DNA from: a virus
Strand: one strand, 5' to 3'
Virus record (IMG/VR): IMGVR_UViG_3300018053_000047
Span: 1-21,898 of that record
DNA: 21,898 nucleotides
Positions 1-16,090 of this stretch are shown in pieces. A program made the position numbers and the translations under genes. The first letter of the stretch is position 1; each line of letters begins with the position of its first letter. The notes below the pieces were generated by a model. That model saw only the letters and a program-made list of their open reading frames with translations, was not told the DNA's origin and ran no database searches.

Positions 1-3000
1 ACCCAAAACAATGGGTCAGAATCATTCTGACCAACCATGAACAGAACACATCCGTATGTCTCAATCGGTATTGCAATGATTGAATTTAAAGATATTCCGC
101 TAGTTACCTGTGAAGGCTGGCTTGACGCTACTGACCAGGTATCTGTCGATGCATTTAGCTGTCTGAGATTACCGTCACCACATACCACAAGGAAGTTTCC
201 GCCAACAGGATCATAAGTGACACGATTAGAGTTCTGTCCTAAGCTAACAGGAGAATTGCTAAGCTGAGTAACAGTCCCAGTGGAGCTCATCCTCCAAACT
301 TTATTAAAGTCATTTTCTCCACCGCCAAACAATAGGATATTGGCTATAGGAGACACTACACAGAAGCAATGGAAATCCCCCATTGCTCTGGTGGTCTCCA
401 GATTCCATACGCTTCCTCCATCCTGGAGATACCAGACCTCAGTGCTACCGGCTACGTATCTGCGAGAGCGTGCTGCAAAATAGTCAGTTCCGTTGAATCC
501 GTGTTGTATTGCTCCAGGGAATGACGGTTGACTAGACCAAACTCCTGTTGGGATATCATAGATATGTGGATTGGAACCTCCGTGCTCGAAGAATTTTCCA
601 GGCCTGCCTCTGGAATGACCGTAGCCATGATTTGTCCCAGGAACGTCTACGAATGACGGGCTAGACTCAACTCGGCACGAATTGGTAGCGTCATCAAATG
701 TGACGAACCGCCGCATGTGGTCAGAGTCTACCGGTGTATGGTCCGACCCGATAAAATAAACTTTGCGGCTACCAGCATCCCAATACCCGCAGCTTGCGAA
801 TATCAAAATTGAACCATCTACACCGTTAGTGCCTGGAGGCCCAGTGAATGCTTGGCCTCCAGTTACTCCTAGAAGTTGCCCCCATGTACCGTTTTGCATG
901 GAAGCAGTAAGGGCAGAAAGAGAGGACCCGGTAGGAGGCGGTGGTCCTCCTCCGCCTCCAGTTACACTATCGACAACTATATTGTCTAAATAATTAGTAT
1001 CCCCATGTCCATTCGCATAGGCCCCCCATGTTCCCGATTGTTTCCTGTCAGGATCGCTATCCAAGAATACGAGGGTAGCAGAGGCATCTATTTGAAGCTC
1101 TAAACGAACCGGGTTTATGCCAGAAGCACTAAATCTCCATGTCCTCGTAGCGTCAGTATTTGATATTCCGCGATCAGCCGATGCAATTACTGTTCTTACA
1201 CCATTAGTCCATCGAGCTATTTCCACCTCACTAGCTATACTAGGCGTTACCCGTGCCTCGTAAAAATTGGCGCTGTTGTCTGTGGCACAACGTACGAGTA
1301 AACCAGCAGTGCTCTGAACAGATATTGTGGTAGTAAATACACTAGCGCTAACTTGCTGATCACCAGTTGGGCTAGACGGATTAACACATCTAACATAATG
1401 GGTGCTGCCAAAATCACTTAGTATGCAAACATTCGGTGGAAAACCAGATCCGTCATTGACAAATAACCTCCCAGGTCCTGTAGCTAGAATATTTACGAAG
1501 TCAGGACTGCCTGGAGGGTATTGAAGTAAGAATGTCCCGCCTGACGGAACGCTGCTGAAATCCTGTGTATATACTATAGTCCCACTGCCACCAGTTGTTC
1601 CAACAAGAAGCAGGACACTGTCATTGCTTCCGAATGGTGATGCAATTGTCCTAGACGCTCCTCCTAGGACAGGAGATCCGGAACTCTCTGTTCCGTCTGC
1701 CGGATTGAACCAGCTTACTGTGAAATTTGTAGAAGCCGGTGCTTCGGATAGGTTGATGGTAATTGAACCACCACCTTGGTCGTAAACCAAATATTCCGTT
1801 CCTGTTATCCCAGAACATACCTGCCCAGATCCGCTATCAACTAAACTGTTCTTCTGAACCCATTGTCTGTATCGTGTCCGTGTATATACGAAGTCAAACA
1901 TCCTACGGACGCTTGACTCCCCCAGGTTTGTATTAGAGTAGACCCACCTAGAATAGACTGGTATGACGCCAGCGAGAACCTCACCCCAAGCACCGCGCCT
2001 TACCTCTGACGCGTTCGTAGGCAGCCCTGTCGTACCTGCAGTTGACTCCCAGATGTCCTCTGACCCAAGTATTGGTTTATTTATAAACGGATCGCCAATT
2101 CCCCCAGATCCGTTGGGGTCAGATATCTGCTGAACCCCTGCCCTGCGTGAATTGCCAGTGAAAACGGAAGTTGTCTGCCCTTGCCGCATTGAAAATGTAA
2201 GCCACCCTGTAAAGGTGGAATACGATGCGTCGTGCATTGATAGCATCGTCGGCCATGGATTGTTATTTTTAAGGTATTGGCCTATGGCGCTAGCATCTGT
2301 CGGGCTAAGTATGTCCTCCCACTCGTAGAGATAGCCAAAGCCGAAGAAATTGAAGTACGGAGCGAAACGCGCTAACCAGTATTTCAAAAAAACCTGGGCA
2401 TCGGCAAGATTGGCTGGCTGAGATCCTTGCCCAAAAATGGAGAACGGAAACGCGTAGACGTTAGCATTAGCACAAAGAGTAAGTGCCGACTCGTGTGTTT
2501 TAAAGACACTACAATTAAACCTCTTTTTGTTAGTCCCGCTACCTTCATACCATGTAGTAGTCATGGCTGTCGGCTCTCCGACATAGCCTTGGTTCTGCCA
2601 CATGACCATGTTGTATGAACGATTGATCACATCGTTTTGCAACACTGCCTGATAATTGGCAGACTCAGCAACGATATCTTTAGACGCTGTAGCAAAATAC
2701 AGCCAACTCTGAACGTCATATGGCCTGGCGTGAACTACAGCATTCCTGGCATCCATGAAGTACCATGGATTATCCATCGCTACTTTTAGATGCCCTCGGT
2801 ACAGCCCTGTATCGACGCAAGAGAAGCTGCCAGGTGAAGGATTGGTAGTAGCGTCTGACCAATCCATTGTGTAGTTCCATGTCCCTACTTCGTTAGGACG
2901 AAAGCGGACTCTCCAAACATTTCCTGTCTGGCCACCAGCACCGTCCCCATCATGGAAACCGTACCAGTTGTAAACAATGCCAGTAGGCGACGTGAATTGA

Positions 3001-3092
3001 GCTGTTAACTCGATTACCGTGTAATCGTACTTGTTGCTGTATCCGGTAGCGTTTGTTACAGATAACTCAAATAATCCGTGTAGCTCAGCCAT
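1..3092 (-). CDS. Large multidomain glycoside-hydrolase-like virion protein (3' end beyond window)
   Basis: The frame is open from ATG at 3092 (AGGA box 5 bases upstream) to the left edge: 1030 full codons and no stop. About 1-75 resemble the DUF5060 beta-sandwich that precedes some glycosidases ('YNWYGFHDGDG', 'RFRPNEVGTWNYTMDWSD'). About 80-410 look like a DUF4038/GH140-type TIM barrel ('GHLKVAMDNPWYFMDARN', 'KPILGSEDIWE', 'RRGAWGEVLAGV'). About 415-505 resemble the collagen-binding-like domain that usually follows it ('GTEYLVYDQGGGSITINL'). About 510-705 are a beta-rich sandwich, 711-720 a Gly/Pro linker, and 722-1030 a kelch or galactose-oxidase-like propeller ('ILLFGGGENDFNKVW'). It probably binds and hydrolyses host surface polysaccharide as a tail spike or fibre; the substrate is unknown and catalytic acids were not assigned. 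It follows the head-tail joining gene, where tail genes would be expected. Domain calls are from memory of the families, without a search. Confidence 0.85.
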   Translation of the reverse strand, partial: MAELHGLFELSVTNATGYSNKYDYTVIELTAQFTSPTGIVYNWYGFHDGDGAGGQTGNVWRVRFRPNEVGTWNYTMDWSDATTNPSPGSFSCVDTGLYRGHLKVAMDNPWYFMDARNAVVHARPYDVQSWLYFATASKDIVAESANYQAVLQNDVINRSYNMVMWQNQGYVGEPTAMTTTWYEGSGTNKKRFNCSVFKTHESALTLCANANVYAFPFSIFGQGSQPANLADAQVFLKYWLARFAPYFNFFGFGYLYEWEDILSPTDASAIGQYLKNNNPWPTMLSMHDASYSTFTGWLTFSMRQGQTTSVFTGNSRRAGVQQISDPNGSGGIGDPFINKPILGSEDIWESTAGTTGLPTNASEVRRGAWGEVLAGVIPVYSRWVYSNTNLGESSVRRMFDFVYTRTRYRQWVQKNSLVDSGSGQVCSGITGTEYLVYDQGGGSITINLSEAPASTNFTVSWFNPADGTESSGSPVLGGASRTIASPFGSNDSVLLLVGTTGGSGTIVYTQDFSSVPSGGTFLLQYPPGSPDFVNILATGPGRLFVNDGSGFPPNVCILSDFGSTHYVRCVNPSSPTGDQQVSASVFTTTISVQSTAGLLVRCATDNSANFYEARVTPSIASEVEIARWTNGVRTVIASADRGISNTDATRTWRFSASGINPVRLELQIDASATLVFLDSDPDRKQSGTWGAYANGHGDTNYLDNIVVDSVTGGGGGPPPPTGSSLSALTASMQNGTWGQLLGVTGGQAFTGPPGTNGVDGSILIFASCGYWDAGSRKVYFIGSDHTPVDSDHMRRFVTFDDATNSCRVESSPSFVDVPGTNHGYGHSRGRPGKFFEHGGSNPHIYDIPTGVWSSQPSFPGAIQHGFNGTDYFAARSRRYVAGSTEVWYLQDGGSVWNLETTRAMGDFHCFCVVSPIANILLFGGGENDFNKVWRMSSTGTVTQLSNSPVSLGQNSNRVTYDPVGGNFLVVCGDGNLRQLNASTDTWSVASSQPSQVTSGISLNSIIAIPIETYGCVLFMVGQNDSDPLFW

Positions 3093-3105
3093 TTGTCCTA
3101 GCGCC

Positions 3106-3132
3106 AATAAAAATGGCCACCGAAGTGGCCAT
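3106..3132 (-). terminator. Rho-independent terminator, TTCG tetraloop
   Basis: On the minus strand an 8-bp perfect stem ATGGCCAC/GTGGCCAT closes a TTCG tetraloop and is followed by TTTTTATTGG. It ends the head operon after the 55-aa gene. The T-tract ends about 13 bases before the ATG of the glycosidase-like gene, leaving no room for a promoter between them. Confidence 0.88.
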
Positions 3133-4396: not shown

Positions 4397-6328
4397 CTAT
4401 GTGATGCTCGCCGCCACTGAAAAGGCTGTGGGATATCTCACAGCAATATCTATAGATGCAATTGCACGCACCCCGACAATTCCAGCCTGGAAATTCGCAA
4501 ACGGGTTGACCTCAACCTCGAGCACACCCCACTCGCCAACAATCACTTGGCCAAAATCACCAAAGATCATAGTGGCTGCCGGCATTTGGTTAGATGCCAT
4601 TCCACGATAGCCGTCCACGTTTGCGCTTTCCAGACGCCCTTCCCAGATCGGTGAAGCAGTGCTGGCAAACTTAACGCGAGTTTTCAGCAAGCCAGCTACA
4701 GCACCTGTAGTGACATACCCAGAAGCTTCAGTAAGCGCATTTCCGGCAAATACATCTGTCTGGAATTCCACTATATCGTCATAAGCGAGAGAAGTACCTG
4801 TCACCGCTCCAACCCCAGAAGTACCGATAATGCCCAAAGGTTGACCGGACGCACCTGAGCCGTTTAGTCCAGCTAGGTCGATAGCCAGAGCAACCACAGT
4901 GGCGAGATCAGACATCACCAAACCCTCTACAGCAGGATTGGCTTGTAACAGCAATTGCCTGCTGATCTCCGTGTAACCCCCAACGTTCTTGGGTGACATG
5001 GCAATCTGCACAAAGGTTTGCGTGATCTCGGTTATTCCCGTGGCTTCTGTTGCTAACCAAGTCGCTGACCCGGTTGCGGACTGCTTCGGAATAGCTACAT
5101 TTCCTTGCAATCCTGGAAGGCGGCGCGCACCCATGTTGAACAAAACCGAACGATTGCGAAGCAATTCAATAAACCCAACATTCGCGGTCTCGACCAAAAA
5201 TCCACCTGCGCCAGCAGTGGCTACGGTTAAATCACGTTTCAGGATGGCGTAAGCAAGGTCTTCAACCGGAGACCTTGCTGCTCTCTCTTGCACCTCGTAA
5301 GGAACATAGAACTTTTGTGGATCAGGATTCCTGCCAAGCTTCTGTGCAATAGCGCGCGAGCACTCTGCCTCGAATCCGGCATTGGTCCAATTCCCACCGT
5401 CGCTAACTGCCAGGATGGCCTTCGCAATGGAAAATCTCCTGGTTTCTGCACTGGTCAATCCAATTTTTGAGATGACCTTTGACCCATCTTTACCGCGCGA
5501 TTCTAGAATACCCATGAGTTCCTGAGACACCTGCCTCATTGATGCGCCAGAAGTAATCCACTCATTCTTGATTCTTTGGTCGATATTGTTAGCCTTGCAG
5601 AGATTCTCAATACCCTCCCTACGGTCCTTCTCCATATCCATGGCCTGGGTACGGCGTTCTGTGGGTCTGGTATCTCGACCTTCGTTCCCAGACTTTGCTG
5701 CTACTTCATTGTCTTGCACCCAAGACTGGGATTCGTGCTGTTCGGCGACTTCGCCCGCCGTGGCGCTTGCTTCGGTAGACATATTTGTCTCCTGTGTTTC
5801 GGCGGCTGCCGCCGGTTCATTGATGGTCCGAAAGTGGACCTCTGTTTCGCTATCCGCGAAATTCCTTCCGACCCCTACGGTAATATCCGCAGGGACAGTA
5901 ACGATCGATATTTCCATTGGCTCCCACTCAGTGATCCGGAAAGTATTCGTCTTTTTATCTTCCTCGCCATCAATGATTCTGTATGCCATTGACACATTGG
6001 ACAGGATGTCATCTTCGACCATACCGAATACTTCATTACCTCTATCGTGCTTACCAAACCTGACTAGCGCATGACCCTTGCGATCAGCGCCGTTGCGCGC
6101 CCCCTCTATCACCCCAACAACATCATCAATATGATGATTAAATAATGCGTTCGCGCGTGAATTCAGGCGATCAAGACGCATGCCGTCGCCATGAACAAGA
6201 ATTTCTTTCCCCCATATACGATTAACAGGTTCTTCGGAAGAAAAAGAAAGCTCAACCGTCCGATTATCTTTATCAATCTTCCGGCTAATGCCTCTTGGAA
6301 ATAATCTGTATTGAGTTCCTAACTTCAT
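4397..6328 (-). CDS. Fused HK97-type prohead protease and major capsid protein (643 aa)
   Basis: Residues about 1-165 match the HK97 prohead protease family (peptidase U35): 'RTVELSFSSEEPVNRIWG', 'ANALFNHH' with the candidate catalytic His, 'DDILSNVSMAYRI' with the candidate catalytic Ser, and 'WEPMEISIVTVPAD'. A charged, Gln/Glu-rich linker and delta-like helical region follows (about 170-330). Residues about 340-643 match the HK97-fold major capsid protein: 'VATAGAGGFLVETANVGFIE', 'LLRNRSVLFNMGARRLPG', 'DLAGLNGSGASGQPLGI' and a C-terminal strand 'VGVRAIASIDIAVRYPTAF'. The family normally cleaves the delta domain during prohead maturation; here protease and shell protein come from one polypeptide. 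There is one continuous frame with no frameshift. It is preceded by a 79-aa gene one base away. Confidence 0.93.
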   Translation of the reverse strand: MKLGTQYRLFPRGISRKIDKDNRTVELSFSSEEPVNRIWGKEILVHGDGMRLDRLNSRANALFNHHIDDVVGVIEGARNGADRKGHALVRFGKHDRGNEVFGMVEDDILSNVSMAYRIIDGEEDKKTNTFRITEWEPMEISIVTVPADITVGVGRNFADSETEVHFRTINEPAAAAETQETNMSTEASATAGEVAEQHESQSWVQDNEVAAKSGNEGRDTRPTERRTQAMDMEKDRREGIENLCKANNIDQRIKNEWITSGASMRQVSQELMGILESRGKDGSKVISKIGLTSAETRRFSIAKAILAVSDGGNWTNAGFEAECSRAIAQKLGRNPDPQKFYVPYEVQERAARSPVEDLAYAILKRDLTVATAGAGGFLVETANVGFIELLRNRSVLFNMGARRLPGLQGNVAIPKQSATGSATWLATEATGITEITQTFVQIAMSPKNVGGYTEISRQLLLQANPAVEGLVMSDLATVVALAIDLAGLNGSGASGQPLGIIGTSGVGAVTGTSLAYDDIVEFQTDVFAGNALTEASGYVTTGAVAGLLKTRVKFASTASPIWEGRLESANVDGYRGMASNQMPAATMIFGDFGQVIVGEWGVLEVEVNPFANFQAGIVGVRAIASIDIAVRYPTAFSVAASIT

Positions 6329-6707: not shown

Positions 6708-8264
6708 CTACCATCCAGACACCGAGAAGTCATCTATGTAAATAGTCCCATTGCCTAGGCTGGTTAGGTCAAACCTGAATTCCAGCGCGTTGGCCCAAAC
6801 AGGAGCCTCCCTAGAGCCAACCGGGCGCTCCCCGCGCATAGTCCACGTATTCGTAGGAGTTATGGCTCCTGGACTGCCTATGTTTTGGCTAGCTATTATA
6901 GATGGCAGGCCGTTTTGATTAGTACCTATACGAACCCACTGCATGTTATATGTATAAGTACCAGTTACAGCACCGCTGATGTTCCGGTCCCAGTACCGAA
7001 CAGACATAACCTGGCCAGAGTTAGATAGCGGGATATAGCAATTAGCTGTTGCATCAGCCCCAGTAGATCGCGTAATGGCTAGTGAACCGGTTCCAGTATT
7101 GGCAGTAGTAGTGCTGCGTGCAGTAGCTACTGAAGTCCCCGTCCCGCGAGCGTCGAAAGTTGCCGCCCCGGTGCAGTAGAATCCTACGCTCTCGGTAGTC
7201 TCAAAACCGCCATCCACTAGCGAATTCCTTAAATCACTCGCTAGTGCATATGGCATCTCGGATACGTCATAGAACTTTGTTCCATCTACAACAATAAGCC
7301 CAGTGCCTATGGCGAAATGCTCGGCCGTGTTGCGGAAGTTAACCATAAGCGAACCGCTTAAGCGAGCTGCCGCTGGCGAGGTGATATTAAAGTACTGCCC
7401 TACAGCATGCGGGGCACCCGCTGTATGTACAAATTCACCAGCAACGAACGAAGCTCTAGACCCGGACCCTGACAAAATAAACCACGTTGACGTATCATCA
7501 CTGCCCTCAAAATGACATCCGCTAAAGTGTGTGCGCCCGGCTGTCTGGGTTAACAAATATCCGGTGTTGTAGTCCATATGCATCCCATAGAAAAACATGT
7601 CCGTCTCGGGATCAGCTAGGTTTATTCCATTCACACCATTGGCTATGACACTGCCAAACCAACGCAGTCCCTCACCCTTATTGGCTCCGCTTGGTACTGA
7701 GATTGCAAGACCACAATCGTAATAATTGCAGTTGTAATGATTCGTCAGATAGGCATTGTCGCCAAATGCCTCGCCTATCCCAAAATCCTTAACCATGATA
7801 TCCCTGACTTCAACATTGGCTACTCCAGCCAATCCAGTTCCTGGCGTTAAATTAAGCGCAGTCACTGTGCCAGCCTGCCCATTGCCCAGCAAACGCAACC
7901 GCTCCAATGCAACAACATGCTGATCATAAAGCCCGTAACCTGAAGCGGAGCTTCCAGTCAGGGTTATTACGGAACCGGATGTAATAGAGCTAGCATCTAT
8001 GCTGATATTGTTGAAATCAACCCCGGTTTTTGAGACATCAATTGTGATTCCTGAATTAATTTTGCATCCAGCAACTTCATTAGAGTCAGGGAAAACAAGA
8101 GTGCCCTTTGTTGTGCCGCTTACAGCATTAATGGCGTTTTGTATTGCGGCTTTGTCGTCAGCAGTACCATTGAATACTGCTCCGTAACGCTCTAAGGCTT
8201 TTCCGAAACGCCTATCTTGTTCCGCTAGCCTTCTCCTAGAGGACAACTCCAGGGCATGCCTCAT
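6708..8264 (-). CDS. Beta-helix tailspike-like protein with C-terminal carbohydrate-binding-like domain (518 aa)
   Basis: After a basic N-terminal segment (MRHALELSSRRRLAEQDRR) the motif 'YGAVFNGTADDKAAIQNAIN' is the typical opening of the pectate-lyase-superfamily right-handed beta-helix seen in phage tailspikes. Repeated short strands rich in N, G and hydrophobics continue to about residue 350. The C-terminal part (about 355-518) begins 'NSLVDGGFET' and ends 'TIYIDDFSVSGW', like carbohydrate-binding sandwich domains (CBM4/9-like). It likely binds or cleaves host surface glycans as part of the virion; enzymatic activity cannot be assigned. Its start overlaps the stop of the 95-aa gene (ATGA), so the two are coupled. 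It could also be a capsid-attached fibre, given its place in the head gene region. Confidence 0.82.
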   Translation of the reverse strand: MRHALELSSRRRLAEQDRRFGKALERYGAVFNGTADDKAAIQNAINAVSGTTKGTLVFPDSNEVAGCKINSGITIDVSKTGVDFNNISIDASSITSGSVITLTGSSASGYGLYDQHVVALERLRLLGNGQAGTVTALNLTPGTGLAGVANVEVRDIMVKDFGIGEAFGDNAYLTNHYNCNYYDCGLAISVPSGANKGEGLRWFGSVIANGVNGINLADPETDMFFYGMHMDYNTGYLLTQTAGRTHFSGCHFEGSDDTSTWFILSGSGSRASFVAGEFVHTAGAPHAVGQYFNITSPAAARLSGSLMVNFRNTAEHFAIGTGLIVVDGTKFYDVSEMPYALASDLRNSLVDGGFETTESVGFYCTGAATFDARGTGTSVATARSTTTANTGTGSLAITRSTGADATANCYIPLSNSGQVMSVRYWDRNISGAVTGTYTYNMQWVRIGTNQNGLPSIIASQNIGSPGAITPTNTWTMRGERPVGSREAPVWANALEFRFDLTSLGNGTIYIDDFSVSGW

Positions 8265-8568: not shown

Positions 8569-8607
8569 CTAATCCTGTCCTAATAACCAGCCTTCATCCA
8601 TGCCAAG
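8569..8607 (-). repeat. Intact partner of the duplicated 3'-end segment
   Basis: This is the 3' end of the 1463-aa gene, including its TAG stop. It matches 6640-6678 at 31 of 39 bases in the same orientation. The pair flanks the 95-aa and 518-aa genes. Confidence 0.68.
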
Positions 8608-11600
8608 CGCAAAACATCTTTTCTGAGAAGCAAGCATAAATTGAAATATAAATCCATTATCAATGGTTATCTCTATAGGCTCAGCTATCAACACGCGCTC
8701 GACTCGCAATTCAGCAGGATGGCCTATTACTTCAAACGAACCGCCCTCTGCTTCTAATTCAAACTCGAATAGCTGCGGCGGCTGTTCTAACTCTTCCGGT
8801 TCTTGCCATTTGTGAATCTCGAAAGCAGGCGTCCATTGTTTAAATATCTGAGGTTCGCCAACCCAACTTCCTGTAGTTACACCACCGACAGAACCGGTAA
8901 CAAACCCGTTCGTGGAGGTGGTATCAGCGTCTTCTGTGGCGGCTATAGCGCCAGTAAGCGCCGGTAGGGTTATGAACCCTCCTAGCGTACCGACATCCTC
9001 GCCTTCTGTTACAGCAATGGACCCGGATGCTTTTACGACACCAGCTATTGCTGATGTATCAGCGCCTTCCGTAACACCTACAGTTCCGCCCTGGCCAACA
9101 ATGGCACTTATGCTGCTTGTATCTGCCGATTCGGCAATAGCTGATGTTCCAGCCACTACTACAATCCCGGCCCCTGCTGCGGTATCAACAGATTCAGTTA
9201 CGGCTGATGTACCCAGAGTACTAGCAAGACCTGCTGCCGCAGCAGTGTCTGCATCCTCATTAGCGGCTACCGTAGCCGCTAAGCCAAGCGCCCCGACAGC
9301 AGTCGATGTATCTGCTGACTCAATTAGCGCTGCGGTTCCTAATGCCGCCAGAGCACCAGACGCAGTTGATGTGTCGCTAGCCTCTGTGGTGGCTACCGAA
9401 CCACTAATCGCGGTGCCAACCGACCCAGATATGACAGAAGTATCATGTGCTTCGGCAGCCTCTATCGTGCCAATTGCGTTTACAATCCCTGATGCTGTAC
9501 TAGTGTCCGCCTGCTCGGTCGATGCAATAGATCCGATAACCGCGACCACAGCAGTCGCGTTTGACGTATCCACCGACTCGGTAACGGCAACTGTCCCAGT
9601 TACCCCAATTGCCGCATCGCCAGAGGCAGAACAAGTATCGGCAATTTCCGTTACATCTGCGGCACCTAGCGTGACCGCTAAAGCTGCAATAGATGATATG
9701 TCATCAGATTCGGTTATTGATACAGTTCCAGTTGCGGTTACGGTCCCATCTACTGAGACTGTATCAGTCGCCTCTGTTACCGCAACTATACCGGTCCACT
9801 GCACAGCACCAGATATACTCGGGCTGTCGGCCACCTCGATAATGCCAGATGAGCCAATAGCAGCAATTACGCCGGCCGCATTACCTGAATCTGTGGCTTC
9901 TGTTACCGCTATCGCGCCAGTGCGCGATACAGCGTCAGGCCTGACGACAATGGTGTTAGCTATCCATTGCTCGGAGCCTATCGTTGCTGTACCAGGATTT
10001 TCAGATCCCGAGTTCAGCGCCCGAGTGGCCATGGCCACTCCGGCACCGCCGGCATTGACCCAACGATTTGTTACTTGGTTATCAGCATAGTCGGCTGGAT
10101 ATGACGTATGCGATACATTACCGTCCCAACCATAAACAACGATCCAGCGCGAAAATTCTGATCCCCAATTAGCTGGATCGAGGCTTGGCGGGTTTGGGTT
10201 AGTGCTCGAACCAGTGGCGGCTGTGCCTACTGCCAGACCTTCAACTGCAGAACCGTACCAACCGGTAATCCTATAACTAGCGTGCGCAGAACCTTCGCTC
10301 GAACTAGTCGTTACGGTGATAGTAGTTCCTTCGCCACCATCAGCCGAGCGACTGAAAACTGTTAATCTATTTGCAGTGCCATTAACCTCGGTGAATAGTT
10401 CATTCCAGCCAGTCGCCGGTGTAGTGACGCTGGCAGTAGCAGCACCATCATTCGAAAATGCTACTAACAGTAAATCTCCTGCCGCTATGCTCGTCGGTAG
10501 ATTGACTGTATGCGCCGTGCCATTACCTGCCGAATTGCCGCTATTAGTAGCCACTACAGACGGGGCTGACATAACGGTACCAATCGACTCCACAGAGTCA
10601 GCACCATCGGTGATGGCAGTAGAGCCGATTACTGTGACGAGTCCCACAGCAGATGTAGTATCAACTGTTTCTGTGGTGGCTACAGTGCCGCTAACAGCAC
10701 TGCCGACTACCCCAGATACAGATACTGGGTCCTGGGCTTCCGAAACGTCTATGGTGCCAGTTGCTTCAACTATACCTGACACTGTGCTAGTGTCATCCTG
10801 CTCGGTTGTGGAGACTGAGCCAATGCCAGAGATCACAGCTGCTATGCTGGACGTATCCTCAGCTTCCGATACTTCGACCGTACCGCCTTGACCCACAATA
10901 CCCGAAATGACAGGAGCATCGACGGACTCTGTAACTGCTATGGTTCCGGTAACAACTACCAAGCCATCAACTACTGATGTGTCAGTAGACTCAGTTACAG
11001 CTATTGTTCCTATAGAACTGACTATGCCTTGAGACGATCCAGAGTCAGGATTCGATAGGCCATCGAACAGCTCCGTAATTGAAGCCATTCCGGTAGCAAC
11101 AATAGCTCCGGTAGCCGCGCTTACATCCTCAGCTTCGCTTACAGCGATTGTTCCTGCAACTACAGGTATTTCACCAAAAACAATTACCCCGTCAGCCAAT
11201 AAATTGCCAACACGAGTCCTACCTATTTCATCCAGCAATAACCATACAAATTCCCCAGTTTCTGTAATCTTCTGCGAAGCATCACTTACTGAACCGGATA
11301 TTGCCGAGACATCTGCTGACTCTGTTACAGCTATTGTGTCTACAACGCTTACGGTACCGTAAGCCGTGGTGAAATCTTTAAGGACTATCGATGTGTCGGC
11401 CTGCTCGATTATGGAAACAGATCCTTCAGCAGGCAAGAATCCGCCAATTGTTGCTCCGTCCGATAGTTCCTCTATTTCACTTGAGCCTATTATTCCGCTA
11501 ACCACAACCCCGTCTATAGAGGAAGTATCGTCGGATTCATTTAGTACAATTTCACCGCTGCTTATCGTCAGACCGGTAATATCCGATGTATCTTCTTGCT

Positions 11601-12960
11601 CAGTTGCCCCGGATGTGCCACTGATAGTTAAAATGCCATCGGCAGATGCCGAGTCGCTTTCCTCTGTTACGGCGACAGTCCCGAACCATTGCACAGACCC
11701 AGATGTAGAGTCTGTATCATCGGACTCTGTAATCTCTAAAGCACCAGTAGAAGTGAGCGTGCCTGAGGCACTCAATGTGCTATCCGCTTCGGTTATTGCT
11801 AGCGTGCCGCCTGTGGCTATTGCACCTACAATCTCCGATGTGTCATTCGCCTCGGTAACGTCCGCCGAGCCGGGAGATATGGCTGTGCCTGAGGCTGAAG
11901 CAGTATCAGCAGTCTCGGTTACATCCGCCGCGCCTTGCGCAATTATTAAACTGGTAATAAATGACGTATCATCATCTTCTGTTACGCCAGCCGTACCAGT
12001 GCCAACTATCAGTGCTGCTACAGATGATGTATCGGCGGCCTCTGTAACCCCAACTGTTCCAGTGGAAAGCAATACACCAGTAGCCGAAGCAGTATCGCTT
12101 GCCTCAGTAACATCTATAGTTCCCAGAGCGGTAACTGTCCCTGAGGCACTAGCTGTACTGGCGTCCTCCGTAATAGCCACCGTGCCTGACACAGTTACGG
12201 AAGCAGCAATAGCTGACGTGTCCGCAGCATCCGTAGTAGCACTGGTACCGGTAATACTTCCGCCAGCACTCTCTACATGGAAATCTGGTAGTGATATTGC
12301 CCGGAAAATAGGTGGATGCGCAGAATCAGCTAACGTACCAGTTACTGTTAGCTCAAGATTCGTTACAATATCTATTTCAGGGCCGGTTTTTCCTATAATT
12401 GGCCGGTAGGAAATAAGATTTTGAGGCCTAATGCAAAGTGGACTTATACCTTTCGCAAGAGCCTCAACTTCGGCCTGGCTTAAATCCGCGTCCCAAATTG
12501 CAAGCTCCGCCAAGCTACCTGCGAACGGGTCTCCTGTTGCAGCGAGCTGAAGGACTCCTACTCGCTCATTGACCAAACCTGTCGGTGTGCTACTACTAGT
12601 ATTCGTTCCACTAGATGCCCAGTTACCGGCACTTACAACTCGACGGCTAGTAGCAGAAGTTCCTATAGAGGCAGCATGTGTCCATGTATTTACGCTTGGT
12701 GTATTAGTCGCGCGCGCTGTACTAAACACTCCGGAAATCACTGAATCAAATGTCAGTTGTCCGGAGTTATCCCCGTCTAAGTATGCTTGCCACCAGGTAT
12801 TGGTGCTAGTTCCAACAGATTCACTCCATAAAGTATGGTAATTGCTTGCGGCTGGAAGGCCGGACGAGTTATACCAAATACTTACGGTGAACGGATATGC
12901 TGTAAAGGCCGCCGCCGATCTGCCTAAATAGTTCGCAGTAGAAAATCCTGAGCGAGCCAT
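8569..12960 (-). CDS. Giant LamG-domain protein with about 40 degenerate 21-residue repeats (1463 aa)
   Basis: Residues about 1-225 are a concanavalin-like LamG domain ('AYPFTVSIWYN', 'GSLAELAIWDADLSQAEVEA'). About 237-797 hold some 24 copies of a roughly 21-residue repeat, consensus G-T-h-x-h-T-E-x-x-D-T-S-x-h-x-G-h-h-x-x-x (h hydrophobic), for example 'GTVAVTEESDSASADGILTIS'. About 797-1010 form a separate beta-sandwich-like domain ('AHTVNLPTSIAAGDLLLVAF', 'ANTIVVRPDA'). About 1013-1360 hold some 16 more repeats. The last 100 residues are charged and end 'GMDEGWLLGQD'. Two irregular spots occur near residues 480 and 570. There is no signal peptide, so display on the virion is more likely than secretion. 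The repeats probably form an extended stalk or stacked beta structure carrying the glycan-binding LamG head. The whole frame is intact; function is inferred. Confidence 0.85.
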   Translation of the reverse strand: MARSGFSTANYLGRSAAAFTAYPFTVSIWYNSSGLPAASNYHTLWSESVGTSTNTWWQAYLDGDNSGQLTFDSVISGVFSTARATNTPSVNTWTHAASIGTSATSRRVVSAGNWASSGTNTSSSTPTGLVNERVGVLQLAATGDPFAGSLAELAIWDADLSQAEVEALAKGISPLCIRPQNLISYRPIIGKTGPEIDIVTNLELTVTGTLADSAHPPIFRAISLPDFHVESAGGSITGTSATTDAADTSAIAASVTVSGTVAITEDASTASASGTVTALGTIDVTEASDTASATGVLLSTGTVGVTEAADTSSVAALIVGTGTAGVTEDDDTSFITSLIIAQGAADVTETADTASASGTAISPGSADVTEANDTSEIVGAIATGGTLAITEADSTLSASGTLTSTGALEITESDDTDSTSGSVQWFGTVAVTEESDSASADGILTISGTSGATEQEDTSDITGLTISSGEIVLNESDDTSSIDGVVVSGIIGSSEIEELSDGATIGGFLPAEGSVSIIEQADTSIVLKDFTTAYGTVSVVDTIAVTESADVSAISGSVSDASQKITETGEFVWLLLDEIGRTRVGNLLADGVIVFGEIPVVAGTIAVSEAEDVSAATGAIVATGMASITELFDGLSNPDSGSSQGIVSSIGTIAVTESTDTSVVDGLVVVTGTIAVTESVDAPVISGIVGQGGTVEVSEAEDTSSIAAVISGIGSVSTTEQDDTSTVSGIVEATGTIDVSEAQDPVSVSGVVGSAVSGTVATTETVDTTSAVGLVTVIGSTAITDGADSVESIGTVMSAPSVVATNSGNSAGNGTAHTVNLPTSIAAGDLLLVAFSNDGAATASVTTPATGWNELFTEVNGTANRLTVFSRSADGGEGTTITVTTSSSEGSAHASYRITGWYGSAVEGLAVGTAATGSSTNPNPPSLDPANWGSEFSRWIVVYGWDGNVSHTSYPADYADNQVTNRWVNAGGAGVAMATRALNSGSENPGTATIGSEQWIANTIVVRPDAVSRTGAIAVTEATDSGNAAGVIAAIGSSGIIEVADSPSISGAVQWTGIVAVTEATDTVSVDGTVTATGTVSITESDDISSIAALAVTLGAADVTEIADTCSASGDAAIGVTGTVAVTESVDTSNATAVVAVIGSIASTEQADTSTASGIVNAIGTIEAAEAHDTSVISGSVGTAISGSVATTEASDTSTASGALAALGTAALIESADTSTAVGALGLAATVAANEDADTAAAAGLASTLGTSAVTESVDTAAGAGIVVVAGTSAIAESADTSSISAIVGQGGTVGVTEGADTSAIAGVVKASGSIAVTEGEDVGTLGGFITLPALTGAIAATEDADTTSTNGFVTGSVGGVTTGSWVGEPQIFKQWTPAFEIHKWQEPEELEQPPQLFEFELEAEGGSFEVIGHPAELRVERVLIAEPIEITIDNGFIFQFMLASQKRCFALGMDEGWLLGQD
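8880..9930 (-). repeat. Repeat array II: about 16 coding repeats, 63-bp period
   Basis: Tandem units of about 63 bases encode G-T-h-x-h-T-E-x-x-D-T-S type repeats, for example 'GSIASTEQADTSTASGIVNAI' minus its last residue. Neighbouring units differ strongly in DNA sequence while keeping the protein pattern. Some units carry two or three extra residues before the next G. Confidence 0.85.
10570..12250 (-). repeat. Repeat array I: about 24 coding repeats, 63-bp period
   Basis: The same 21-residue unit as array II, with interruptions near 11230 (an insert of about 40 residues without the motif) and 11050 (extended unit). A three-unit block with the marks STEQ/TTEQ, GTI..EA.D and SGVVGSAVSG matches a block in array II (SGSVGTAISG), which indicates block duplication between the arrays. 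Confidence 0.83.
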
Positions 12961-12965
12961 TGTCT

Positions 12966-13457
12966 TTATGTCTCTTTTATTTCTACGGCCACAAGCTCAG
13001 CATCACCAGCGGCATTATCGTTTGCGACATCTCTGCGCACTCTTAGCCTAAATGCTTCGCCAACTGCAATGCTATCAATGTTTGCGCCGTTAGTTACCGC
13101 TACATTGGTTATGTCTACTAATCCAGATGTGCCTGGTACAGTAGCAGCCGTAACTACTTGAGCAGTAGCGAAGCTATCAGCATCTAAATCTTGCTGCCCA
13201 TCGCCAATACGCTCAAAAGCCACATCCCAACCGATGGTCCCGGTAGTGGCCGTACTCGCTGCCCAGTGTACATAAACAGTAACTCCTCCACCCCCGTAGT
13301 GCCTAGGTAATACACTTGTCCAGATTGCGCTTTCCTGTGTAGTAGTATCGAAATCCAACACTGGATGCTGGTTTCTCGTGTCCAACGTTGCGTAATTCGT
13401 GGCCGTAGGTTCATATGCTAACGGGGTAAACACCAATAACGTATTACCTGTTGCCAT
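12966..13457 (-). CDS. Virion-type structural protein (163 aa)
   Basis: Starts MATGNTLLVFTPLAYEPTAT immediately after the stop of the 99-aa gene (adjacent bases). It is a compact beta-rich protein with 'RNQHPVLDFDTTTQESAIW', 'GGGVTVYVHWAASTATTG' and a closing 'LRVRRDVANDNAAGDAELV'. I recognise near-identical patterns in many environmental phage genomes, always next to structural or fibre genes and without a described function. The jelly-roll-like strand pattern and position suggest a small virion or receptor-associated component. Operon neighbours on both sides are repeat-bearing proteins. The ATG is preceded by only weak ribosome-binding sequence, so translational coupling to the 99-aa gene is likely. 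Confidence 0.7.
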   Translation of the reverse strand: MATGNTLLVFTPLAYEPTATNYATLDTRNQHPVLDFDTTTQESAIWTSVLPRHYGGGGVTVYVHWAASTATTGTIGWDVAFERIGDGQQDLDADSFATAQVVTAATVPGTSGLVDITNVAVTNGANIDSIAVGEAFRLRVRRDVANDNAAGDAELVAVEIKET

Positions 13458-13757
13458 TTAGGAATTCTCCGAAATATATGCGATGCCGGTAATCTGCGGT
13501 ATATACTCTAAAATAAACGCAGTCCCAATAATTTTTCCTGTCGCAGTAATCAAGACAGTGTCCGCTATTTCTGTTGCACCAAGGTTACCGCCTGCCCCTA
13601 CCATTCCAATAATAGCAGCGGTATCAACCGCCTCTATAAACAACACTGAGCCAGCAACAGGAGCACCACCGACTGTCCCGGACGCAGATAGCGTATCTTT
13701 CGTTCCTCCGGTGGACCACAAGATTGCCGTTATCTGTGACTGATCTTTTAGAGCCAT
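13458..13757 (-). CDS. Short protein made of the same repeat as the giant protein (99 aa)
   Basis: Begins MALKDQSQITAILW and then contains about two and a half copies of the 21-residue repeat: 'TKDTLSASGTV', 'GSVLFIEAVDTAAIIGMVGA', 'GNLGATEIADTVLITATG'. It ends 'GIAYISENS', echoing 'GYAYILE', the end of the protein encoded just upstream. It starts 4 bases after that gene's stop and runs straight into the next ATG. It may be a detached repeat module that associates with the repeats of its neighbours, or a remnant of a longer repeat protein. No catalytic feature is visible. Confidence 0.7.
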   Translation of the reverse strand: MALKDQSQITAILWSTGGTKDTLSASGTVGGAPVAGSVLFIEAVDTAAIIGMVGAGGNLGATEIADTVLITATGKIIGTAFILEYIPQITGIAYISENS

Positions 13758-13761
13758 GTAG

Positions 13762-15585
13762 TCACTCTAATATATATGCATAACCAGTAGTAGCCGTTAC
13801 GGTTATCGCGCCAGAGGCGGCAGCCAAATCAGGCGCATCTGTTATTAACACAGTTCCAGTAATATTTGCGTCTTGAAACTCCAAAGCCCCAATATTGGGG
13901 GCTGTCCCGCTTATAACTTGCCGCCCAGCCGAATCCTTCCACAGCCAAACATAATCTCCATCATTACGTGTGATAGAACTCGTCAGAGTGACAGTATTTG
14001 TGGAATAGTTGATCCCTGCTAGCTGAATCTTTGTTGCGCCAGTGACATTATTGCTGGTAGGTCCTACGGCGATCCAATCCCACTGCACCCCCATCCATGC
14101 AGGGAACCCTGACACGTCGTAGAAAAATCTTGCATCATCCAGGATTAGGCTTGTCCCTGTACCTGTATCTGCAATTGCAACTCTGGTGAGAGGCGCACCG
14201 CCGTCTATGTATGGACTTGAACTAGTTAGCGTGAAATCGTTGGCAGCATAATTAGTAAATCCTGGTGCAGCATCGTAAACATTTGCGAAGCCATTCCAGT
14301 CGCGGAGATCTGGGCCAGTAGGATTAGTAAAGTTAGCCTTGGCCTCAGCCAATGTCCATCCACTATCGTTCCAAAACAAAATATCTTCCGATGAAGAACC
14401 GCCTGGGTTGCCCACTACATTGCGGATAAATCTGTCGTTTACAGTCGGAGTCGGATCTCGGTAAACAATGCATATGTTGGACCAGAACTGAGCATTCCCA
14501 TCATAGAAGAAATTGTTGACTAAAATCCCATCACCTATAATGTGCGAAGTGCTTCCGATAAAATTGGCAATACCAAAAGGCACTCCAGCAGAATCCACGG
14601 CGGTATTGTTGTAAATGCGGTAACCAGTTACCGGCTGCACATTGTCACCACCATAGCCTCCAGCTATCCCACCCTGAGAATCGAATCCACACGGTGCTCG
14701 ACATCCTTCGAACAGAGTGTTGTATCGGATTAACATGTTGGTCGAACCGACCTGCAAAGAACTACCGAAATTACACTCAGGACCTATGCAAGTCGGAATT
14801 TGTGCTTGGCACTGTAGCCGCGAATTCTCGACTAGCATGTTCGGGCCGCAGTTGTAAATAGATTGCGCGGTATGCGCGTTATTCCAAACGAAGTTTCCTC
14901 TTGACGCAATGAATGAACCGTTAGAACCCTGGTTATTGAAAGTAATATGTCTGGAAGCACCATCGAAGATGTTATCTTCAACCAAACAATGATCAGACAT
15001 TCCACCCATGTTTATCAGATCTTCCACCCCCGTACTAACACTAGTTGTGGAATTCCCGGTGATGTGGCACTGTCGTAAAATATTAAACCTTGTTTGTTCC
15101 TGTTCCCCGAAGCTATGGACCCCGAATTGAATACCATAGTTAGTGGCATTCGTATCCGTGGATACAGATATGAGATTGGACATAATGCATCCAGTAGCAC
15201 CATTAAAGGAAGCCATGGCACTCACTTGCCCAGAAGGCAAAACTATAACTATTCGACGAACGTCAACAGCATCAGAATCCCCTCTGCCTATGACACTTAC
15301 ATAGCTCTTATTTGATAGGTTGATAGCTCCTCTCTTAGTAGATCCAGTGCTGGAGAACCCTGTTAAATTTACGGTGCCGTTGCCAAAGGCTTGATAGGTG
15401 ATCCGATTAGCATCCGAGGTTCCGTCGTTAGTAGATCGAATAGCATCGCTATACGTACCAGCCTTTATGTAGACCTTGTCTCCAGCGACTAATGTCGTGT
15501 TGGCCTTACCTATAGTTAGCCAAGGCGACGCCTCAGTTCCGGCATTACTATTATTGCCCCCCGGGGCAATATAGTACGTAGTCAT
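13762..15585 (-). CDS. Right-handed parallel beta-helix virion protein with C-terminal repeat unit (607 aa)
   Basis: The N-terminus 'TYYIAPGGNNSNAGTEASPW' followed by 'GDKVYIKAGTYSDAI' is the classic opening of extracellular polysaccharide-lyase-like beta-helix proteins. The middle (about 80-480) is full of short N/G-rich rungs such as 'NILRQCHITGNSTT', 'LVEDNIFDGASRHITF' and 'YRIYNNTAVDSAGV'. Cysteines cluster near residues 245-300 ('CIGPECNFG', 'EGCRAPCGFD'), unusual for a cytoplasmic protein and possibly metal-binding or disulphide-forming. The last 35 residues carry one copy of the repeat of the 1463-aa protein ('GTVLITDAPDLAAASGAI'). It is probably a glycan-binding or glycan-cleaving spike or fibre. 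The start abuts the stop of the 29-aa frame. Confidence 0.8.
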   Translation of the reverse strand: MTTYYIAPGGNNSNAGTEASPWLTIGKANTTLVAGDKVYIKAGTYSDAIRSTNDGTSDANRITYQAFGNGTVNLTGFSSTGSTKRGAINLSNKSYVSVIGRGDSDAVDVRRIVIVLPSGQVSAMASFNGATGCIMSNLISVSTDTNATNYGIQFGVHSFGEQEQTRFNILRQCHITGNSTTSVSTGVEDLINMGGMSDHCLVEDNIFDGASRHITFNNQGSNGSFIASRGNFVWNNAHTAQSIYNCGPNMLVENSRLQCQAQIPTCIGPECNFGSSLQVGSTNMLIRYNTLFEGCRAPCGFDSQGGIAGGYGGDNVQPVTGYRIYNNTAVDSAGVPFGIANFIGSTSHIIGDGILVNNFFYDGNAQFWSNICIVYRDPTPTVNDRFIRNVVGNPGGSSSEDILFWNDSGWTLAEAKANFTNPTGPDLRDWNGFANVYDAAPGFTNYAANDFTLTSSSPYIDGGAPLTRVAIADTGTGTSLILDDARFFYDVSGFPAWMGVQWDWIAVGPTSNNVTGATKIQLAGINYSTNTVTLTSSITRNDGDYVWLWKDSAGRQVISGTAPNIGALEFQDANITGTVLITDAPDLAAASGAITVTATTGYAYILE

Positions 15586-15675
15586 TTAGAGACGCGCTCC
15601 CTTGCGGCGATTTTCTTCGGCAAGAAGAACCTGAGCAAGTGCCGTGCCGGCGTAAGTCATTGATTTATCAGGCAT
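15586..15675 (-). CDS. Micro-protein bridging two virion genes (29 aa)
   Basis: The frame reads MPDKSMTYAGTALAQVLLAE and then nine more residues, ENRRKGARL. Its ATG overlaps the stop of the upstream 134-aa gene by 8 bases, and its TAA directly abuts the ATG of the beta-helix gene. It therefore fills the only gap between the two without waste. The product is one amphipathic helix with a basic end. It could be a real small protein, or a leader whose translation couples the flanking genes: AAGGGAG near its end serves the next start. No family is recognised. Confidence 0.5.
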   Translation of the reverse strand: MPDKSMTYAGTALAQVLLAEENRRKGARL

Positions 15676-16072
15676 TTCCAGCGGTCACGGTGAACGAAGT
15701 AACACTCACCTGTTGACCAGATGAAATCGCGGTGCTATTCAAATTAAGGTCCGATCCAGAAGTTCCTACATTCCCGTCGATGACGCAAGAGCCAGTTGAT
15801 GTCACACAACGGAACCAAGTAGCCGTCCCGGTAGCATTAGCGCTTGCGTCAGCAGTAATAGCCGACATAGTGAGAACACCGGAAGACGCCGCCGCTGCAC
15901 ACGGGTCAGTAAACGTCAACTCAGCCAGTAGAGTTGTCGCTGTACCGCAGGTCGCTGGGCGAGTACCGTCATAAATTCTAAGGAACCCGGCACCAGCGCC
16001 TCCATCAATTGCGTCCCTAACCACATTAAGACGCGGGTTTCTAACCAGAACAACATCATAAGAAATTGCCAT
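15668..16072 (-). CDS. Virion-type structural protein (134 aa)
   Basis: The start at 16072 (MAISYDVVLVRNPRLNVVRD) is preferred over the ATG two codons upstream because AGGAG lies 8 bases before it and only 2 before the other. The pattern 'DAIDGGAGAGFLRIYDGTRP' and 'TTLLAELTFTDPCAAAASSG' belongs to a very widespread small phage protein found beside fibre, head-tail or decoration genes, generally annotated hypothetical. The fold is likely a beta sandwich, with a Cys pair 'RCVTSTGSC' in the middle. It is the first gene after the double terminator and so opens the surface-protein cassette. Function is not established. Confidence 0.7.
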   Translation of the reverse strand: MAISYDVVLVRNPRLNVVRDAIDGGAGAGFLRIYDGTRPATCGTATTLLAELTFTDPCAAAASSGVLTMSAITADASANATGTATWFRCVTSTGSCVIDGNVGTSGSDLNLNSTAISSGQQVSVTSFTVTAGNA

Positions 16073-16090
16073 CGTCATATCTCCTGACGT

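What the first reader, a model, noticed from the sequence alone, without database searches (positions are those of the whole stretch)
8569..12960. Giant phage protein with about 40 degenerate 21-residue repeats in two arrays around a beta-sandwich
The repeat G-T-h-x-h-T-E-x-x-D-T-S recurs about 24 and 16 times with strong DNA divergence but a kept protein pattern. That implies selection on structure and possibly against recombination between units. A conserved Glu and Asp per repeat at fixed spacing suggests ordered acidic ladders that could bind calcium or stack as a beta-solenoid stalk presenting the LamG domain.
Basis: partly seen in the sequence, partly recalled or inferred. Interest (0 to 1): 0.72.

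Follow-up and report, generated by a model that had tools for sequence, protein, structure and literature searches.

The report
Acidic repeat rod of phage adhesin
A large phage protein carries about 40 worn copies of a 21-residue unit belonging to a widespread, uncharacterised repeat family whose genes sit beside a tail-tip "garland" gene in diverse phages; its two signature acidic residues are exchanged as a pair, which makes the idea that each unit holds a metal ion directly testable.

Summary
The repeat is real. A column-wise score finds 37 units of 21 residues in the 1463-aa ORF (21 before and 16 after an all-beta domain), plus a few degenerate ones; shuffled copies of the protein average 0.15 windows over threshold. 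Units share 38% protein and 48% DNA identity, and synonymous sites are saturated. A LamG domain is confirmed at aa 10-165.

The repeat is not unique. It occurs in over 100 phage ORFs, some prophages and isolate phages, and matches an unknown-function PHROG (phrog_38872). Its gene is tightly linked to a homologue of the baseplate garland protein of phages 7-7-1 and Milano: 39 of 42 IMG/VR repeat loci with 4 kb upstream have it there, 0 of 36 downstream, and 1 of 79 loci with a related portal have it at all. This points to a tail-tip adhesion cassette. AlphaFold2 gives two strands per unit in a curli-like or beta-helix stack (pLDDT 75), but AF2 is known to overcall such folds.

New here: Glu7 and Asp10 are swapped together for Gln7/Gln10. 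Glu7 with Gln10 was never seen. That fits a shared ligand such as calcium, unproven.

The parts
8569..12960 (-). Repeat adhesin ORF, 1463 aa
   Evidence: Open frame with ATG; repeat units
12466..12933 (-). LamG (Laminin_G_3, concanavalin A-like) domain, aa 10-165
   Evidence: PF13385 E 1.3e-12, above curated cut-off
10627..12249 (-). Array 1: 21 clear units of 21 aa plus a few degenerate ones, aa 238-778; net charge of aa 238-797 is -81
   Evidence: PSSM, charge, AF2 model of aa 238-489
9925..10569 (-). All-beta domain between the arrays, aa 798-1012; homologous domains in repeat loci L099 and L090 and in L186
   Evidence: Profile search, AF2 pLDDT 59; no Pfam match
8890..9918 (-). Array 2: 16 units, aa 1015-1357
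   Evidence: PSSM
8569..8889 (-). C-terminal region aa 1358-1463, no relative found
13527..13652 (-). Two units of the same repeat in the 99-aa neighbour gene (13458-13757)
   Evidence: PSSM 12.2 and 9.5 bits; phmmer to repeat proteins down to E 7e-19
13795..13857 (-). One unit at the C-terminus (aa 577-597) of the 607-aa beta-helix, pectate-lyase-like gene (13762-15585)
   Evidence: PSSM 13.5 bits; PF22842 E 3e-7, PF07602 E 0.012
15668..16078 (-). Garland-protein homologue (phrog_3758), 136 aa; ends the upstream side of the adhesion cassette
   Evidence: phmmer to PDB 9rkv_A E 2e-7; to 7-7-1 gp012 and gp014; linkage
12966..13457 (-). 163-aa gene between the 99-aa gene and the repeat adhesin, no family
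6708..8264 (-). Tailspike-like gene, 518 aa, downstream member of the cassette
   Evidence: phrog_7458 tail spike protein E 1.7e-5; PF12708 E 0.008

Best explanation
The protein is a structural adhesin of the phage tail tip (tail-fibre or receptor-binding network). It belongs to a mobile adhesion cassette that begins with a garland protein. The 21-residue units form two rigid, highly acidic beta rods that space a LamG domain, an all-beta domain and a C-terminal region. Each unit most likely makes one coil of a two-sheet beta-solenoid: strand 1 about residues 2-7, strand 2 about 12-18, with Glu7 and Asp10 meeting at the arc between them, where together they bind a cation such as calcium. Shown: the repeats, the wide family, the gene linkage, the LamG domain, the coupling of positions 7 and 10. 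Inferred: location at the tail tip, rod shape, cation binding, sugar binding by LamG.
For: Linkage: a garland homologue lies within 4 kb upstream on the same strand in 39 of 42 IMG/VR repeat loci that hold that much sequence, 0 of 36 downstream, none on the other strand; 34 garland clusters at 70% identity, so not one clone. Among 79 loci with a related portal only 1 has it, and that one also has the repeats. Garland proteins (7-7-1 gp014, Milano gp125/gp127) wrap the distal ends of tail spikes and fibres (PMC12796354; PMC10811340). Non-repeat segments of the family match LamG, BNR/sialidase-type and minor tail or tail-fibre families. Curvibacter phage P26059A, an isolate, carries the gene between a structural gene and protease/capsid as here. 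AF2 on 24 diverged arrays: two strands per unit throughout, pLDDT 75, pTM 0.67; VIA-align: curli CsgA Z 25 (rmsd 8.0, 252 aligned), EtpA beta-helix Z 19.5 (rmsd 2.7, 239 aligned). Hydrophobic residues at 3, 5, 14 and 18 alternate, and the arrays are on the folded side of the charge-hydropathy line. Coupling at 7/10: E-D 561, E-Q/N/H 1, Q-Q/N/H 224, Q-D 18 among 845 distinct units found without using these columns.
Against: No virion proteomics or imaging was available for any carrier. AF2 makes confident but unrealistic beta-solenoids from repeats (PMC11795689). Foldseek found no PDB match at E below 0.001. Inter-unit covariation showed neither the stacked nor the antiparallel pattern. In the second AF2 model, with a shallow alignment, the few flanking repeats were not confidently folded. 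Gln-Gln units show that the acidic pair is dispensable for the fold. PHROGs files the garland family under head and packaging, and in the window the cassette lies between portal and capsid genes.
Confidence: 0.6

Rival explanations
1. The arrays are flexible or only partly ordered acidic linkers (polyanionic spacers); the solenoid is an AF2 artefact and the acidic pair only sets solubility or charge.
For: Composition is rich in Ala, Thr, Ser and Gly with almost no aromatic residues and -2.2 net charge per unit; AF2 solenoid bias is documented.
Against: Strict 21-residue phase with insertions only between units (spacing 21 in 485 steps, 23 in 47, 24 in 37), alternating hydrophobic positions, invariant Gly1, Glu7, Asp10 and Gly16, and coupled replacement of positions 7 and 10 are not expected of a linker.
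Confidence: 0.2
2. The protein is a head or neck appendage (capsid fibre) rather than a tail-tip adhesin.
For: In the window and in Curvibacter phage P26059A the gene lies in the head gene cluster; PHROGs labels the linked garland family 'head and packaging'; phage 7-7-1 has capsid fibres of unknown protein (PMC12796354).
Against: The only garland homologues placed in solved virions are at the baseplate; in Vibrio phage CKB-S1 the homologue directly follows a baseplate assembly gene; in Mycobacterium phage Charlie it follows minor tail genes.
Confidence: 0.15
3. The repeats are consecutive small antiparallel beta-hairpins (a meander or bead string) or an intertwined multi-chain fibre, as in the adenovirus shaft, not a single-chain solenoid.
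For: Two strands per unit and glycines at fixed places also suit such folds; AF2 was run on one chain only.
Against: AF2 and VIA-align favour a stacked beta-helix-like form; no antidiagonal covariation between neighbouring units, though that test has little power.
Confidence: 0.25
4. The array is a recombination-prone length-variation device.
For: Relatives differ widely in unit number, from 2 to 37.
Against: In this gene the units are too diverged for slippage: longest shared word 14 nt, saturated synonymous sites, no tandem repeat call.
Confidence: 0.05

Closest known systems
phrog_38872 (PHROGs v4, unknown function)
   Same: Matched by 23 of 24 aligned repeat arrays, best E 1e-22; same repeat family.
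   Different: The window array matches only at E 0.0096; the PHROG has no function, structure or unit definition attached.
Garland proteins of Agrobacterium phages 7-7-1 (gp014, gp012) and Milano (gp125, gp127)
   Same: The linked gene at 15668-16078 is a homologue; the cassette has a beta-helix gene next to it, as 7-7-1 has gp015.
   Different: 7-7-1 and Milano were not tested for the repeat; the repeat adhesin itself is not a garland protein.
Curli CsgA-type beta-solenoid (about 22-residue units, Gln/Asn ladders)
   Same: Similar unit length, two strands per unit in the AF2 model, and Gln pairs in some units.
   Different: Sequence motif differs; acidic pair dominates; secretion and polymerisation genes were not examined; rmsd 8.0 A over the full alignment.
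Calcium-bound RTX / antifreeze beta-solenoid (MpAFP, PDB 3p4g)
   Same: Acidic residues recur once per coil and could line up to bind calcium (named as the exception in PMC11795689).
   Different: 19-residue GGxGxD-type units there (own knowledge); no sequence relation found.

Membership tests
phrog_38872 repeat family | Profile match | tested here: inconclusive
   Window array E 0.0096 on its own; 23 of 24 aligned relatives match, best 1e-22
21-residue E-x-x-D repeat family as defined here | At least 3 in-phase units scoring 9 bits or more | tested here: met
   37 units
Laminin_G_3 (PF13385) | Score above curated cut-off | tested here: met
   48.5 bits against 27.6
Garland-linked adhesion cassette | Garland homologue upstream on the same strand | tested here: met
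   15668-16078, 2.7 kb upstream; 83 bases before the repeat-bearing 607-aa gene
Curli CsgA | Curlin repeat sequence (Pfam curlin) | tested here: not met
   No curlin model matched the window array or any of the 24 arrays
Beta-solenoid | Two or more strands per repeat stacked in register | tested here: inconclusive
   AF2 prediction only, pLDDT 75; known AF2 bias
Calcium-binding repeat | Measured calcium binding | not testable with these tools
   Only covariation of positions 7 and 10
Phage tail fibre or receptor-binding protein | Presence on the tail of virions | not testable with these tools
   Gene linkage only

The most novel reading that the evidence does not exclude
The units come in two interchangeable chemical states, acidic (Glu7-Asp10, cation-dependent) and neutral (Gln7-Gln10, amide-paired), mixed within single arrays, so that phages tune the stiffness or ion dependence of their adhesin rods unit by unit; single units at the ends of neighbouring proteins (607-aa and 99-aa genes) cap or seed the rod by end-to-end stacking.
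Probability: 0.25. Interest if true: 0.78.

Novelty: new variant of a known kind. Interest (0 to 1): 0.56.

Why it matters
A widespread repeat with no assigned function gets a genomic address (the garland-linked tail-tip cassette), a unit definition and a sharp, testable rule (Glu7 only with Asp10; Gln7 mostly with Gln10). If confirmed, it would add an ion-dependent beta rod to the small set of known phage fibre scaffolds and give natural acidic and neutral versions for comparison.

Tried and rejected
Pfam and NCBIfam gave no match for the repeat in this ORF; weak single-member Pfam matches among relatives (DUF5649, SPOCS and others) looked like chance. Solved-structure sequences: none. tblastn of the whole protein or of array 2 against isolate phages: none; a relative's array was needed. 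Megablast of the window against phages: none. The search for related loci with the whole protein, the middle domain and the C-terminus: none. Fold search of the middle domain: best Z 5.7, no clear fold. Block duplication between the arrays: suggestive by eye, not significant (P 0.19). Covariation between neighbouring units: no pattern. Selection against recombination: rejected. Long antisense ORFs over the arrays: explained by the sense codons. A strict two-state reading of positions 7 and 10: softened, because Gln7-Asp10 exists (18 units; L311, L312). Some Gln-pattern loci are chance, collagen-like or out-of-frame hits (L237, L244, L270, L272, L276, L278, L293, L303). A linkage recount in the Gln-pattern loci was weaker (16 of 24 upstream, some with the garland gene downstream). 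The window is the whole held record, so no further genome could be read.

Full report
Setting. The window is the whole of one 21,898-base IMG/VR record. On the minus strand it carries a terminase (GpA nuclease), a lambda-type portal, a protease-capsid fusion and, between portal and capsid, a block of surface-type genes: a phrog_3758 gene (15668-16078), a beta-helix gene of 607 aa, a 99-aa gene, a 163-aa gene, the 1463-aa repeat gene, a 95-aa gene and a tailspike-like gene.

Observation. A matrix built from the E-x-x-D motif and refined on the protein finds 37 units, 21 in array 1 and 16 in array 2, against 0.15 expected windows in shuffled proteins; the same unit appears twice in the 99-aa gene and once at the end of the 607-aa gene. 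LamG is confirmed. The middle domain is all-beta with low to moderate confidence and has relatives in two other repeat loci (L099, L090) and in L186. Units share 38% aa and 48% nt identity; pS 0.76, pN 0.43. When residues match, codons match slightly more often than in synonymous shuffles, so DNA similarity is not being avoided.

Family. A degenerate DNA pattern for two successive units hit at least 119 stretches of viral contigs (scan stopped at its limit) and 28 of bacterial and archaeal genome contigs, of which about eight encode clear arrays of several units (for instance Sphingomonas, Methylobacterium, Sinorhizobium, Zavarzinella and Planctomycetota records). Isolate phages with weaker matches are Curvibacter P26059A, Vibrio 367.14, Synechococcus S-CAM7 and Salinibacter B2_17. 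The family is known to PHROGs as phrog_38872, without function, and is rare in cellular genomes: 4 of 298 genomes of one bacterial family, three of them borderline. Attached segments match LamG (7 of 64), BNR-type, DUF4082 and other families, so the arrays look like a common scaffold for exchangeable domains.

Gene linkage. The phrog_3758 gene is homologous to the garland protein gp014 of phage 7-7-1 (PDB 9rkv_A, E 2e-7) and to its neighbour gp012. In 7-7-1 and Milano, 36 garland chains envelop the distal ends of tail spikes and short fibres (PMC12796354; PMC10811340). Of 121 repeat loci, 75 have a garland homologue. Among IMG/VR loci with 4 kb of upstream sequence it is 39 of 42, with 0 of 36 downstream and none on the other strand, over 34 clusters at 70% identity. 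As a control, 79 loci with a portal related to the window's hold it once, in the one locus (L213) that has a multi-unit repeat gene. The cassette therefore travels apart from the head genes. Placement at the tail tip is an inference from this linkage. The recount in loci found through the Gln pattern was weaker: 16 of 24 upstream.

Structure. AF2 on 12 units with 24 diverged arrays gives 24 strands, two per unit, pLDDT 75, pTM 0.67. VIA-align relates the model to curli CsgA (Z 25.3, rmsd 8.0, 252 residues) and to beta-helices such as EtpA (Z 19.5, rmsd 2.7, 239 residues), while Foldseek has no PDB match below E 0.001. AF2 makes confident but unrealistic beta-solenoids for perfect repeats; the same paper found agreement among methods for families whose repeats have diverged, as these have (PMC11795689). 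The fold is thus likely but not shown. Alternating hydrophobic residues 3, 5, 14 and 18 would put Glu7 and Asp10, by parity, on the same inner face at the arc (inference).

Residues 7 and 10. Units were collected with a matrix that ignores both columns. Of 845 distinct units in 102 ORFs: Glu7-Asp10 561, Glu7-Ser10 2 (the window has two such units), Glu7-Asn10 1, Glu7-Gln10 0; Gln7 with Gln, Asn or His 224; Gln7-Asp10 18. Thirteen ORFs mix both states, and in L012 and L004 the Gln units resemble their own array's Glu units more than foreign Gln units (2 of 2 and 11 of 12), pointing to separate switches; in L089 they do not (3 of 14). Scans of all viral contigs with matched patterns gave 77 Gln-Gln stretches (some chance or collagen-like), 1 Glu-Gln (not a repeat) and 4 Gln-Asp (two genuine: L311, L312). 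Counts are not independent, since units share descent and loci were fetched by such patterns. Asp to Gln needs two base changes, and Glu-Gln, which would lower charge repulsion, is the absent combination. The simplest reading is that Glu7 is only useful when Asp10 completes a site, such as a cation site, while Gln pairs do without. This is inference.

Verdict. The family was already clustered but uncharacterised; the garland linkage and the coupled pair are, as far as the held library shows, not described, but subscription papers could not be searched.

Noticed in passing
L004, L007, L012, L065, L089, L238, L246, L247, L275, L280, L296, L306, L307: Arrays that mix Glu7-Asp10 and Gln7-Gln10 units side by side, often sharing array-specific endings.
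   Followed up: partly
13458-13757 and 13795-13857: Two neighbouring virion-type genes carry two and one units of the same repeat; both end with similar short tails (AYILE, AYISENS). They may cap or join the large array.
   Followed up: no
15668-16078: PHROGs files phrog_3758 under head and packaging, but its relatives in 7-7-1 and Milano are baseplate garland proteins, so the label looks misleading.
   Followed up: yes
8912-10090, 10316-10891, 11366-12409 (+): Long antisense ORFs over the arrays; synonymous shuffles give equally long ones (0.405 of shuffles), so no evidence of genes.
   Followed up: yes
4397-6328: Prohead protease (PF04586) and major capsid (PF05065) are fused in one 643-aa ORF.
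   Followed up: no
3-3107: Glycoside-hydrolase-like protein (DUF5060 and Collagen_bind_2) at the record's end; a homologue lies directly upstream of the repeat gene in L099 (8779-11667).
   Followed up: partly
L311, L312: Arrays made largely of Gln7-Asp10 units, the rarer third state.
   Followed up: partly
L238, L269, L298, L301: In some Gln-type loci the garland gene seems to lie directly after the repeat gene rather than before it (inferred from distances).
   Followed up: no
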